A stretch of DNA of 33,603 nt from Prochloraceae cyanobacterium. Lineage in GTDB: Bacteria; Cyanobacteriota; Cyanobacteriia; Cyanobacteriales; JASJDA01. Shown one piece after another: positions 1 to 4,236 of the stretch. The first letter of the stretch is position 1. Every line of letters begins with the position of its first letter. A program made the translations under genes and the position numbers. The notes beneath the pieces are model-generated. The model saw only the letters and a list, made by a program, of their open reading frames with translations, was not told the DNA's origin and searched no databases. Location: the NCBI GenBank assembly GCA_030065755.1, contig JASJDA010000032.1, positions 1 through 33,603 on the forward strand, written 5' to 3'.

Positions 1-18
1 AAGTCAGAATCTAAAAAA
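1..18 (-). CDS. tnpB: TnpB, second exon (partial, runs off left edge)
   Basis: These 18 bases follow the predicted 3' splice site of the group II intron. Joined to the first exon (which ends with two bases of a codon, AG), they read Ser-Phe-Leu-Asp-Ser-Asp. This completes the TnpB-family motif YTS-x-x-S-F-L-D-x-D. The other nearby joins I tried gave a stop or a poorer match. The zinc-finger and last RuvC motif of TnpB should lie further left, outside the window. Confidence 0.7.
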
Positions 19-59
19 ATTAAAGTCAGTGAAGAGGTCGCCCCCTCCACTGCTCTCCA

Positions 60-93
60 AAACCGTGCTTGATACTTTCGCATCACACGGCTC
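60..93 (-). ncRNA. Group II intron domain V
   Basis: A 34-nt hairpin on the minus strand starts GAGCCGUGUGAUGCGAAAGU and ends CACGGUUU. It has the AGC catalytic triad at the base and a GAAA tetraloop, the hallmarks of domain V. A domain VI stem (CAGUGGAG pairing with CUUCACUG) follows at about 52-27, with an unpaired A just after it as the candidate branch point. Confidence 0.9.
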
Positions 94-123
94 CTCAATG
101 AAACAGCGCTTGTCATGCGCACG

Positions 124-2192
124 TCAATCAGAAAATTTGTACATTATGTACTCATTTCCGTCAGGATTTCTCCCCCAAATTCGACCAAATTTATCGGCTG
201 TGTAGGGAACATCGTCAACCCAAATGAAGTTAACTTTATCCCATGCCCTTGAGAACTTTTCGCCCCATTTCTGTGACTCATAATTCTTGATTTTTATTAA
301 GTCTAATTTGGTCTTTTCGTCGTGACAATGTCGATGAAGAAGTTGCCAGTTTTTATACTCATCCTTGCCGCCAATGGCTTTTGGGTTGATATGGTCTAAC
401 TCTATTAAATCTTCATCCATAAAGAACAATCCGCAGTGGGTACATTTCCCTTTTTGCTTCTTGAGCAATGATGCTGTTCGCATTGGCATCTCAGGGTGTT
501 CTCCCATTCTTGTACTCCAATATGTGAGATTTCCTTCATATAGGCTGGCATTTCCTTTTATTTTGGTATGAATTTTGGCTTTGAATGAGCCATATTCTAA
601 TAAGGCAAATGCGTTTTTCTCACTTCTTGTGGAGAATACCCAATTTCTATTTCCTATTTTGTGAAAATATTTATTGGAAATCCAGTGTTTTCCTTTATTA
701 GGGTGTCTTCTCCTTGCCCATCTTTGTAACTTCCAATATATTTGGAAATCCATTCGATAGAATACCTTAGAGGGGCATCCTATAGAAAAGTAATTGCACC
801 ATCCTCTGATTATGGGGTTTAGGTTTTTGATTAACATATATTGCGGTTTGGCTCTATGTTTATCAATGACCTCTTTTATTTTCTGGTAATGTGCTTTTTG
901 GCTTTCTTTTGATGGGGTTATAATCGTGCTGAAACCTAGCAGTTGACCATTTGTATTCTTTCCAGACGTATATTTCCCTGATTTGAATTGTCGGATGTTG
1001 AAGCCAAGAAAATTTAGTCCTGCTTTTTGTCCTTCATATTCGTTTAAGGTGTGTATTAGTCTGGTTTTACTAGGTTTGATTTCTAATCCCATGTCTTTTA
1101 ACCATTCCGAGATAACTTCCTTACATCTTTGAACAACGGCTAGACTTTCGTGAATGATTACGAAATCATCGGCATATCGTATCAGTGAGACTGACCTTCT
1201 TCTTAATGAGATGCTTAAAAGGTGACCCTTTTTGTTTCTCATGTTGAATTCTTTTGCCAGTTCCTTTATACGATTTTCCATGCCGTGGAGGGCGATATTT
1301 GCCAATAGAGGTGATATCACGCCTCCTTGTGGTGTACCCTCGAATGTTTCGGAGAACTCTTTCTTATCCATAACACCAGCTTTTAGCCATGCTCGGATTT
1401 GTTTCCGTAGGGTTGGATAAGTATTTAATTTTTCTAAGAGCCGTTTATGGTTGATTTTATCAAAGCATTTGGCTATGTCGGCATCCAATACATATTTAGG
1501 TTTGTATCTGATGGCGTTAAAAATTGCTCCGATAGCGTCGTGACATGAGCGTCCTGGTCTGAAACCGTATGAGTTTGGTTCAAATTTGGCTTCCCATTCT
1601 GGTTCTAGTGCCAGTTTGACAAGAGCTTGTGTTGCTCGGTCTTTTATTGTGGGTATACCTAGCGGTCGTTTTTCATCCTTCCCAGGTTTGGGAATCCATA
1701 CCCTCCGAGTCGGATTAACCTTGGTATTCAGTGTTAGTTTACTCACCAGGGACAGTCGTTGCTTGGGGGTTAACGATTTGACACCGTCTACTCCTGCTGT
1801 CTTCTTTCCTTGGTTATCCTGAGTAACTCGACGAACGGCTAGGCATTTTGCCGCCCAGGATTTAGTTAGCAATTTTTGGAGTCTGCGAACCGTCTTGACA
1901 TCACCACGACGTGACGCTTTGTATATTCGTTTTTGAAGCTTAAATACGCTTCTTTCTAGCTGATGCCAGGGCTACAAAAAAATATGACAAAGTAGGACAG
2001 TCTTGGACAAAATTACCCTCTTTTTTACTTATATTTTAGTACTTATGTATTGAAAAGAGGGTAATTTTGTCCCCCCTCACGAAAAAACTCCTAGTTTCAA
2101 ACCTATAGCTGGTAAAGACTGTCCTACTTTGTCCAATATTTCTCTCGGGGAATTGTATTCCATTTATACTCTGGTTTTTCAACCTCATTCAT
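124..2192 (-). pseudogene. ltrA: Group II intron reverse transcriptase/maturase (LtrA-like, HNH), split by a small element
   Basis: The gene begins at ATG 2192 and encodes 15 residues (MNEVEKPEYKWNTIP). It is interrupted by a TIR element at 1972-2147, and resumes at 1968 as WHQLERSVFKLQKR. Removing the insert and one copy of its GGG duplication gives one frame of about 629 residues. The remainder has the RT-0 motif (VRRVTQDNQGKKTAG), the TPQGG motif, the YADD active site, the maturase X region (IRGWCNYF) and a C-terminal HNH domain with CxxC and HxxC. As it stands, the first frame runs into a stop inside the insert, and the second has an in-frame stop just upstream. Only a 582-residue product from a TTG at 1872 is open, lacking 47 N-terminal residues. 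I therefore call it broken, with the caveat that an internal start could give a partly active protein. Confidence 0.85.
1972..2147. mobile_element. MITE-like element with nested inverted repeats, inserted in the maturase gene
   Basis: The outer arms GACAAAGTAGGACAGTCTT (1986-2004) and its exact complement (2115-2133) enclose inner arms GGACAAAATTACCCTCTTTT (2005-2024) and its exact complement (2053-2072). The left arms are adjacent, and the right arms are 42 nt apart. The outer ends are imperfectly repeated (CTACAAAAAAATAT / CGAGAGAAATATT). GGG flanks both sides (1969-1971 and 2148-2150) and is the likely target duplication. No coding capacity is seen. Excision restores the host reading frame exactly, which sets the boundaries independently of the repeats. 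Confidence 0.8.
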
Positions 2193-2855
2193 AACGTATT
2201 TACTTCTACTTGAGACTATACATTCCATCTCACCGTGAGTCTGTCTGCATATCCTTATCATTACAATAAGGCTTTGGCTTCTGACCCAATCTTTCCCAAC
2301 TGCTGCCTATCTATTTAGATAGAGTTTTGCGTCTTGGATGACTACTTACCGAATCGACCTTGGGTAAGAGTAGACAGTTGGGTTACTTCGTTCCTAACAA
2401 CCATTGTTTTGTTTCTTTAGGATGGTACTTTCCGCCTTATGTTTCGGGTGACACATATCCGATTGGGAGCAGACCCCTCGGATACCCTTAGTTTTTGACC
2501 TTTTGGTACTCCCAGTGTTTCAGCCTTTTTTCACTGGTTCTCAGTCAAGACGGTTCAAACGTACCTTTGTCTTCCTATCCATAGAAACCTGCTCAGGTGG
2601 CATTGACTTAAGGCTAAGTTAACCTTTACCCTTTCATCCCTGCTTCACGGATTGATGTCCATTCTCTACCGTGAGGGAAGCGCTTTCATCCTTGTGTCTA
2701 GAAGGTTGGGTTTGAATTTTCTAGGATACTCATTCTCACCAACATGGTTATTAAGTTGTCATCTGTTGAGGATTAAAGTGCGAACTCTACCTTATGGTTA
2801 CTCAACAGAAGCCAGTTTTCCCCCTGTTTCCAGGTTTAAACTGAACGAATCGCAC

Positions 2856-3943
2856 CTACTGATTGAGGTATAAGATTCTTCGGTTTCAGTAAAAATAATT
2901 CCTGCTGATTCTGCTAATTCTTTTATTCTGTTTTTTAGTCGAGCTGTGGGTATTTGTACAAAATTTTGATTGTTGCGTTTACCTAAATTTGATTCGTTTT
3001 TTACTCCTTGTCCCCAACCAAATACTATATTACCAATATGGTGATTTAGACAATAGTTAATGATAAACCGTGCAGCTTTATTAACCGCATCTCTCATTTG
3101 ACAGTTACGTTTATGGGTTATCTCATCTAAATACTTGTCCCAATAAAAGTCAGATTTGTTTTTCTTATACTTGGCTACTGCTTTGTTATATCTTTGATTA
3201 ATTGACTTAATTTTACGACCGCAGACGATGAAACTTTTACCAAAACTACTAACAGTAGTTAGCCAGTTAGTACCCCCTGGATCTATACCAATAGCTTGCT
3301 TGTAATCTAACTGTTTTGTTGTCAAGAGTTCAGTTTTATAAACATATTCAGCCCAAACTTTTCCGACTGCTGGAACTATTCTAACTTCTGCTAATTGAGA
3401 GGAACTAAAACCAGAACCTGAAGAAATATTGATTTCCTTGTTAACAAGTTCTGAGTTACATTCTCTGCTAATAGCCAACTTACAAAATCCTTCGTACTCG
3501 TTATACTTGACTGCTTGAGCTGGAAAAACAACTTGATACAATCCGAGCTTCCTGCGATAGTTAGGTATTCGCGGTTTTTGTTCGATTTCACCTTGCCAAT
3601 ACTTTTTGAGCAATTGGTTATAACTAGTTATTCCTTCTACTATACTTTTAAGACATTGCTGTGCTTGTTGTCCTCCTATGCCTATATAATGTTTATTACT
3701 TTTAAAATCCTTGCATAGTTGAGCATAACTAGCTTTGACATATCGGCTTTTAAAAGCACTCCTGTATTGGTCGTCACGGTCAAAAAAAGTACGAGTTTCA
3801 CATTGCTCGAAGTGAGCTTGTCTAACTGCGAACAAAGCCGAATTATAGAGACTATTTGATTGATAGCAGCACCATAGCAAATAGGCTTCGGCTTCATCGT
3901 CTATGTTTCCTGTTAATAGTATCTTCTGGGTATGATATTTCAT
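2856..3943 (-). CDS. tnpB: IS200/IS605-type TnpB, first exon
   Basis: TnpB is the RNA-guided, RuvC-fold nuclease carried by IS200/IS605-type elements. This exon gives 362 complete codons plus two bases. Residues 1-210 are the usual basic N-terminal half. RuvC-I is GIDPGGTNW with the catalytic Asp at 221. Further on come NLGKRNNQNFVQIP and TETEESYTS. The glutamate normally found in a V-x-E-D-L motif is replaced by VFGWGQG. Acid residues in TEESYTS could take its place, as in TnpBs reported to have a rearranged active site. The open frame continues 19 codons into the intron (to 2798), but that tail is intron sequence. Start is ATG 3943, and an RHH gene is divergent 38 bp away. No TnpA (Y1 transposase) is in the window. 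Confidence 0.88.
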
Positions 3944-3981: not shown

Positions 3982-4128
3982 GTGAGTAAGAAAATTTTTA
4001 GCATTAGATTAAGTCCTAGAAGATTAGAAAAACTAAGACTATATGCCGCGCAAAAAGATAAAACTATGACTCAGCTAATAGAAGATTGGATAGACAGATT
4101 AAAACTAGAAGAGGATACGCGAGGCTAA
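3982..4128 (+). CDS. Small ribbon-helix-helix protein next to tnpB
   Basis: A 48-residue product begins at GTG 3982. An ATG at 3972 meets a stop after five codons, so it is not the start. The N-terminal strand-like stretch KIFSIRLSPRRLEKLRLYA, followed by a helix with TMTQLIEDWIDRL, fits the RHH/CopG DNA-binding fold (arginine-rich beta strand, then two helices). It is divergent from tnpB with a 38-bp spacer and ends at the foot of a hairpin typical of IS605 ends. A second copy of the same arrangement, without tnpB, sits at 6560-6691. Likely role: an accessory or regulatory protein of the element. That is inference. No strong ribosome-binding site is visible. Confidence 0.55.
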   Translation: MSKKIFSIRLSPRRLEKLRLYAAQKDKTMTQLIEDWIDRLKLEEDTRG

Positions 4129-4236
4129 AGCCTAGTTCTTGTTTTCATCCTACGGTTTCAAACCTTAGCCTCTCAACTGCAACATTTTACGGTAGATTAT
4201 TTGTTGACCTACTCCCACGGCTGAAAGCAGGTGGGA
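4121..4236. repeat. IS200/IS605-type end hairpins
   Basis: GAGGCTAA (4121-4128) pairs with TTAGCCTC near 4164-4173. Inside lies a short palindrome around GGTTTCAAACC, and CTCAACTG follows. A second hairpin, TCCCAC (4213-4218) with GTGGGA (4231-4236), has the loop GGCTGAAAGCAG, a form common at IS605-type ends in cyanobacteria. Together they look like one end of the tnpB element plus the remains of another end. The exact cleavage site is not determined. Confidence 0.45.

What the first reader, a model, noticed from the sequence alone, without database searches (positions are those of the whole stretch)
1..3943. Group II intron inside tnpB, with both splice junctions readable
The tnpB frame is interrupted by GTGCG at 2855, and the intron ends CTTTAAT at 19. 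Joining base 2856 to base 18 gives YTS-I-S-S-F-L-D-S-D, the conserved TnpB motif, in frame. The intron lies between the RuvC-II region and the zinc-finger part of an RNA-guided nuclease. The nuclease, and any omega RNA made from the 3' end of the gene, would then depend on splicing. Nesting of introns in transposons is known; this exact reading of the host protein is from the sequence here.
Basis: partly seen in the sequence, partly recalled or inferred. Interest (0 to 1): 0.75.

Follow-up and report, generated by a model that had tools for sequence, protein, structure and literature searches.

The report
Group II intron splitting a tnpB gene

Summary
Confirmed. A 2,837-nt group II intron (2855..19, minus strand) interrupts tnpB. 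Both ends agree with Rfam (3' end exactly at 19), with 89 aligned relatives (5' end), and with an uninterrupted same-genus tnpB whose sequence (TCAAAAAGTAG|TTTTC) matches the predicted join without gap or overlap. EBS1/IBS1 and EBS2/IBS2 pairings covary across the family (z = 14.5 and 21.7). The same intron occupies the same motif in two other tnpB copies of this genome, one only 32% identical, whose target pairs perfectly with the intron's EBS1 core and EBS2.

Two corrections. First, the intron's own protein is broken by a 176-bp palindromic MITE (1972..2147), so splicing of this copy may need a maturase from elsewhere. Second, the omega-RNA region lies wholly in the 3' exon, so dependence on splicing is not supported. 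This TnpB also lacks zinc-finger cysteines; its probable RuvC-II glutamate is the alternative one, six codons before the junction.

New here: relatives of this intron interrupt tnpB unusually often (36 of 106 scored; 19 of 28 scored in the window's clade), in frame, at many conserved motifs. Other intron lineages in the same tnpB-rich genome hit none (0 of 11). No paper found describes this.

The parts
2856..3943 (-). tnpB 5' exon, 362 codons plus 2 nt; RuvC-I motif GIDPG; ends EESYTSIS
   Evidence: Pfam OrfB_IS605 E 6.7e-10; 79% identical to an uninterrupted same-genus TnpB, itself NCBIfam guided_TnpB 110.7 bits, cut-off 100
19..2855 (-). group II intron, 2837 nt, GTGCG...GACTTTAAT
   Evidence: Rfam RF00029; 5' and 3' end profiles over relatives; matching empty site in the same genus
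1..18 (-). tnpB 3' exon, first 18 nt (SFLDSD), cut by the contig edge
   Evidence: continuation seen in the C29 copy
2467..2472 (-). EBS1 (CTGCTC), pairs with IBS1 CAGTAG with 5 of 6 pairs including one G-U
   Evidence: covariation with IBS1 over 83 introns, z 14.5
2540..2545 (-). EBS2 (ACTGAG), pairs with IBS2 CTCAAT, 5 of 6 pairs
   Evidence: covariation with IBS2 over 88 introns, z 21.7
2856..2867 (-). IBS2 plus IBS1 (CTCAATCAGTAG) in the tnpB exon
124..1872 (-). intron-encoded protein as listed from the first in-frame start: RVT_N (partial), RVT_1, GIIM maturase, HNH; the frame stays open back to 1971
   Evidence: NCBIfam TIGR04416 348.7 bits
1972..2147 (-). 176-bp palindromic MITE inserted in the start of the intron-encoded protein (MNEVEKPEYKWNTIP | WHQLERSVFKL), CCC on both sides; brings in a stop
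   Evidence: many genome copies at 88-99% identity; closest relative L080 lacks it; ssDNA fold z -8.4
19..95 (-). intron domains V and VI
   Evidence: Rfam full-length match; bulged A eight nt from the 3' end read by eye
3982..4128 (+). small divergent ORF (48 aa) inside the transposable element, 92% identical in copy C390; function not identified
   Evidence: no NCBIfam match
4198..4204 (.). approximate left end of the tnpB element (similarity to three other copies stops here)

Best explanation
A mobile group II intron encoding a reverse transcriptase/maturase with an HNH endonuclease inserted by retrohoming into the tnpB gene of a tnpB-only IS200/IS605-like element. Its EBS1 and EBS2 pair with codons of the conserved ESYTSxxS motif. 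Splicing would restore an intact TnpB and so hide the insertion. Within this genome it reached at least three tnpB genes, including one only 32% identical in protein, by recognising that motif; the EBS loops fit the C51-type target best, which suggests the intron came to the window's gene from a C51-like gene. A MITE has since damaged the intron protein of this copy, so it is probably splicing with help in trans or is decaying. Related introns across cyanobacteria have repeatedly moved to new sites in tnpB genes by changing their EBS sequences. Shown by sequence: anatomy, empty site, pairings, repeated occupation of tnpB. Inferred: retrohoming as the route, splicing in the cell, direction of spread, trans help.
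For: Rfam domain V-VI match ending exactly at base 19. Intron protein domains. Same-genus empty site. C390/C29 copy in frame. C51 copy at the same motif with 27-point pairing, reached by 1 of 259,076 positions in pooled own-genome loci. EBS/IBS covariation. Closest relatives L080 (81%) and L081 (78%) interrupt the homologous codon of other tnpB genes, YTSQN^CSQC and PTSQI^CSNC, with Pfam TNB-domain matches running across the join. TnpB label clustered on two intron-protein trees. Other intron lineages in the same genome, which holds over 110 TNB domains above cut-off, show no tnpB host among 11 scored sites.
Against: No RNA evidence. The intron protein is interrupted. The window's own pairing is moderate: 20 of 67,182 positions in the window score as well. 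Some close relatives are not in tnpB (L099, L106, L116, L192). The 3' exon beyond 18 nt is not in the window, and the pairing of C390 with C29 is inferred from matching type and frame.
Confidence: 0.88

Rival explanations
1. A dead intron: the copy no longer splices because its maturase is broken, and the tnpB is simply a disrupted pseudogene.
For: MITE with a stop near the start of the intron protein. Other copies in this genome are decayed: C51 and C242 show internal deletion joins at contig ends.
Against: The ribozyme parts seen (ends, EBS1, EBS2, domains V-VI) and both exons are undamaged. Related cyanobacterial intron proteins splice and mobilise other introns in trans (PMC2882425), and the genome holds other group II introns.
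Confidence: 0.4
2. The tnpB bias is only abundance: tnpB genes are common and dispensable, so introns that land there survive.
For: The own genome has over 110 TNB domains above cut-off, roughly 1.5-2% of its DNA by my estimate. Insertion in tnpB is likely neutral.
Against: About a third of scored relatives are in tnpB against the roughly 2% expected from share of DNA. 11 scored introns of other lineages in the same genome have no tnpB host. The label is clustered on the tree (0 of 500 shuffles as low).
Confidence: 0.2
3. Assembly artefact: the tnpB-intron join in this contig is a chimera made at repeats.
For: Short-read assembly of 455 contigs; base 1 is a contig end; C51 and C242 show odd joins at contig ends.
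Against: The 5' junction lies inside a 33.6-kb contig. The same junction recurs in C390 and C51 and the same 3' junction type in C29. Relatives in other assemblies, including closed chromosomes, have intron-tnpB joins. The empty site matches.
Confidence: 0.03

Closest known systems
Thermosynechococcus elongatus TeI3/TeI4 introns (PMC2882425)
   Same: Cyanobacterial group II introns that spread inside one genome by EBS changes; twintrons near the start of the intron ORF; one intron ORF (TeI4g) broken by an IS element; proteins acting in trans.
   Different: The passages read do not mention tnpB or transposase genes as hosts. Here tnpB is the main host gene found, at conserved motif codons.
IStrons (PMC4227781)
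   Same: A self-splicing intron joined to an IS605-type element.
   Different: IStrons use a group I intron that moves as part of the IS. Here the intron is group II, has its own reverse transcriptase, and sits inside the tnpB coding frame.
Alternative-glutamate TnpBs and pro-Fanzors (PMC10711439)
   Same: DPG at RuvC-I and a glutamate six residues before the zinc-finger position; cyanobacterial.
   Different: No CxxC cysteines here, and no adjacent tnpA seen, so not filed as a pro-Fanzor.
Group II introns nested in other mobile elements in general (PMC8919778, citing Waldern 2020)
   Same: Insertion into mobile elements is a known habit of group II introns.
   Different: A clade in which most scored members occupy RNA-guided nuclease genes is not described in the papers found.

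Membership tests
Group II intron | 5' end GUGYG and 3' end AY | tested here: met
   GTGCG at 2855, AT at 20..19
Group II intron | domain V-VI structure with branch-point A | tested here: met
   RF00029 55.2 bits, full length; bulged A by eye only
Group II intron | EBS-IBS pairing with the exons | tested here: met
   covariation z 14.5 and 21.7 over the family; 10 of 12 pairs in this copy
Group II intron | intron-encoded RT, maturase and endonuclease domains | tested here: met
   RVT_1, GIIM, HNH; N-terminus interrupted by the MITE
Group II intron | splicing activity | not testable with these tools
   needs RNA or in vitro splicing
Group II intron subclass IIB / CL | subclass-specific domain I features and RT phylogeny | not tested
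   class only guessed from the protein layout
TnpB (RNA-guided nuclease) | sequence family membership | tested here: met
   PF01385 on the 5' exon; NF040570 above cut-off on the uninterrupted same-genus orthologue
TnpB (RNA-guided nuclease) | RuvC D-E-D triad | tested here: inconclusive
   DPG and an alternative-position Glu (132 residues apart) are in the 5' exon; the third Asp (SADANGAAN) is seen only in other copies
TnpB (RNA-guided nuclease) | zinc-ribbon CxxC (present in many, not all) | tested here: not met
   no Cys from ESYTS onwards in L170; none in the C29 3' exon translation
pro-Fanzor TnpB | DPG plus alternative Glu plus CxxC fingers | tested here: not met
   first two met, cysteines absent
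IS200/IS605 element | TnpA transposase in the element | tested here: not met
   only tnpB and a 48-aa ORF up to the left end at about 4200; tnpB-only elements are common (own knowledge)
IStron | group I intron | tested here: not met
   the only Rfam match in the window is group II

The most novel reading that the evidence does not exclude
A cyanobacterial lineage of group II introns has become specialised on the genes of RNA-guided nucleases (TnpB, occasionally IscB), retuning its EBS sequences to codons of their conserved catalytic motifs, so that two selfish elements are nested and travel together.
Probability: 0.5. Interest if true: 0.75.

Novelty: new variant of a known kind. Interest (0 to 1): 0.6.

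Why it matters
TnpB is the ancestor of Cas12 and is carried by very many transposons. An intron lineage that repeatedly occupies its catalytic motifs links two mobile systems. It offers a clean test of how group II introns choose and change hosts, because the target gene family stays the same while the site moves. It also warns that many broken or truncated tnpB genes in cyanobacterial genomes may be intact once spliced.

Tried and rejected
Omega RNA depending on splicing: rejected as unsupported, since the gene's 3' end lies wholly in the 3' exon. C371 as a clean empty site: rejected, it carries a 50-bp insert; G386 used instead. Phylum-wide pattern search for the exact site (386 genomes): the only exact-site matches are the window and C51; two other pattern hits in G121 and G320 were not examined. 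Plasmid-borne relatives: none of six were in tnpB. First tree gave 13 of 16 clade members in tnpB; a larger sample lowered this to 19 of 28 scored, and the lower figure is reported. L087, L090 and L158 are counted as tnpB on weak similarity only (L087 and L090 had no Pfam match; L158 was not scanned). PDB sequence search with the same-genus TnpB found nothing. Literature search found no report of group II introns in tnpB, but the library lacks most subscription papers.

Full report
What was checked. The window is a complete contig (C314) of an 8.46-Mb cyanobacterial draft genome in 455 contigs. On the minus strand a tnpB reading frame starts at 3943 and is interrupted after base 2856. GTGCGATTCG begins at 2855; GACTTTAAT ends at 19; 18 nt of 3' exon remain before the contig edge. 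Rfam RF00029 matches 95..19 over its full length.

Is the join right? Three independent checks agree. First, a genome of the same genus (G386) holds an uninterrupted tnpB, 79% identical, with TCAAAAAGTAG|TTTTCTTGAC at the site; the predicted join reproduces this with no gap or overlap. Second, a second copy in the same genome is split over two contig ends, C390 and C29; joined at the equivalent ends they give one open frame of 465 codons (461 aa from the ATG) through the C-terminal ISADANGAANI motif. There the intron sits one base further downstream on both sides, so the frame still holds. Linking C390 to C29 is an inference from matching type and frame. Third, the intron's EBS1 and EBS2 loops were located by covariation: across 89 introns the match between each intron and its own exon beats re-dealt exons by 14.5 (EBS1) and 21.7 (EBS2) standard deviations. 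In the window EBS1 CTGCTC (2472..2467) pairs with CAGTAG and EBS2 ACTGAG (2545..2540) with CTCAAT, ten of twelve positions.

Other copies in this genome. The same junction occurs in C51, in a tnpB only 32% identical. Its target CTCAGTAAGCAG pairs with all of EBS2 and the five-nt EBS1 core, a score reached by 1 of 259,076 positions in pooled own-genome loci. The window's own target is weaker (20 of 67,182 window positions do as well). The likeliest history, inferred, is spread from a C51-like gene to the window's gene through the shared YTS motif. Uninterrupted relatives of the C51 gene (C65, C414) carry good targets too. C51 and C242 show joins between tnpB and inner intron sequence at contig ends; these may be real deletions or assembly joins.

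State of this copy. The intron protein has reverse transcriptase, maturase and HNH domains and matches TIGR04416, but a 176-bp palindromic MITE at 1972..2147 splits it after about 15 codons and introduces a stop; the closest relative L080 has the uninterrupted sequence. The MITE has many near-identical copies in this genome and folds strongly as single-stranded DNA, z -8.4. Related cyanobacterial intron proteins can act in trans (PMC2882425), so splicing is possible but not shown.

The host protein. The same-genus orthologue is NCBIfam guided_TnpB. RuvC-I reads DPG and a glutamate stands 132 residues later, six residues before the junction position. This matches the alternative RuvC-II glutamate with DPG that PMC10711439 uses as the Fanzor-type fingerprint, but the zinc-finger cysteines are absent, so it is not filed as a pro-Fanzor. 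The element's left end is near 4200 and its right end about 330 nt into the C29 3' exon, some 36 nt after the stop. No tnpA lies between the tnpB start and the left end.

The wider pattern. The 80 nearest intron-protein relatives in GTDB genomes are all cyanobacterial. Joining their exons at the profile-defined ends shows many in tnpB, usually in frame: YTSQN^C (L080), PTSQI^C (L081), DR^D of RuvC-III (L082, L084, L085), RuvC-I (L083), RuvC-II (L096), other RuvC-III positions (L086, L098), EES^YTS (L143), GEKP^E (L145), the N-terminus (L105, L113), the C-terminal side (L112, L118) and mid-gene sites (L104, L114, L132). Pfam TnpB domains were found in the joined proteins of L080-L086, L096, L104, L105, L112, L113, L114, L118 and L143; L083 and L118 fall below the curated cut-off, L114 just below it. 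L098 and L145 rest on BLAST to known TnpBs, and L087, L090 and L158 on weak similarity. Two relatives sit in IscB-type genes (L107, L147; RRXRR domain), and a Calothrix/Richelia group sits in other introns' reverse transcriptase at YGFRPG^R.

How strong is the preference? In the first tree a 16-member clade (SH-aLRT 99) around the window has 13 in tnpB. I then took a second sample from 245 genomes of the same order, which overlaps the first in a few loci that were removed. In the combined FastTree the window's 29-member clade (support 99) has 19 in tnpB, 9 elsewhere and one tandem copy next to a tnpB site; over all scored rows 36 of 106 are in tnpB, and the label is clustered (18 changes against about 30 when shuffled, 0 of 500 as low). 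The own genome holds over 110 TNB domains above cut-off, by my estimate about 1.5-2% of its DNA, yet 11 scored introns of other lineages there have no tnpB host. Six plasmid relatives had none in tnpB. So the preference is real in this sample, is not absolute, and belongs to particular lineages. Its cause is unknown; candidates are conserved targets that recur in new genomes, shared use of single-stranded DNA at replication forks, and carriage by the transposon.

Verdict. The single case is an ordinary kind of event, a group II intron in a mobile element. The repeated, in-frame occupation of RNA-guided nuclease genes at conserved motifs is the interesting part and was not found in the papers searched.

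Noticed in passing
L003:2452-2501 and 13 more places in G000 (C31, C64, C89, C120, C143, C147, C171, C253, C270, C291, C296, C371, C401, C415): A 50-bp palindromic element with 14 copies; 12 lie within or at the end of tnpB genes at four different sites, in frame in all but C401, where no long frame was found. It may be a small element tolerated as peptide inside TnpB, or it may have been amplified with the transposons.
   Followed up: partly
window 1972-2147: Palindromic 176-bp MITE inside the intron-encoded protein, with many near-identical copies in the genome.
   Followed up: yes
L107 and L147: Related introns interrupt IscB-type genes (RRXRR domain), another RNA-guided nuclease.
   Followed up: partly
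L084, L096, L132, L225/L194: Two introns in one tnpB gene, or introns in direct tandem at one tnpB site.
   Followed up: partly
L088, L089, L091, L094, L095: Introns inserted in another intron's reverse transcriptase at YGFRPG^R (twintrons) in Calothrix and Richelia.
   Followed up: partly
L047 (C299), L048 (C249), L054 (C141): 57-112 nt of the intron's 3' end, 98-95% alike; in C299 and C249 followed by the same unrelated sequence (ACTGGATGCGACGGGG...); looks like a 5'-truncated copy duplicated with its surroundings.
   Followed up: no
window 3982-4128 (+): Small divergent 48-aa ORF within the tnpB element, 92% identical in copy C390; no family match.
   Followed up: partly
L012 (C51) and L018 (C242): tnpB or intron 5' sequence joined directly to inner intron sequence at contig ends: internal deletions or assembly joins.
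   Followed up: partly
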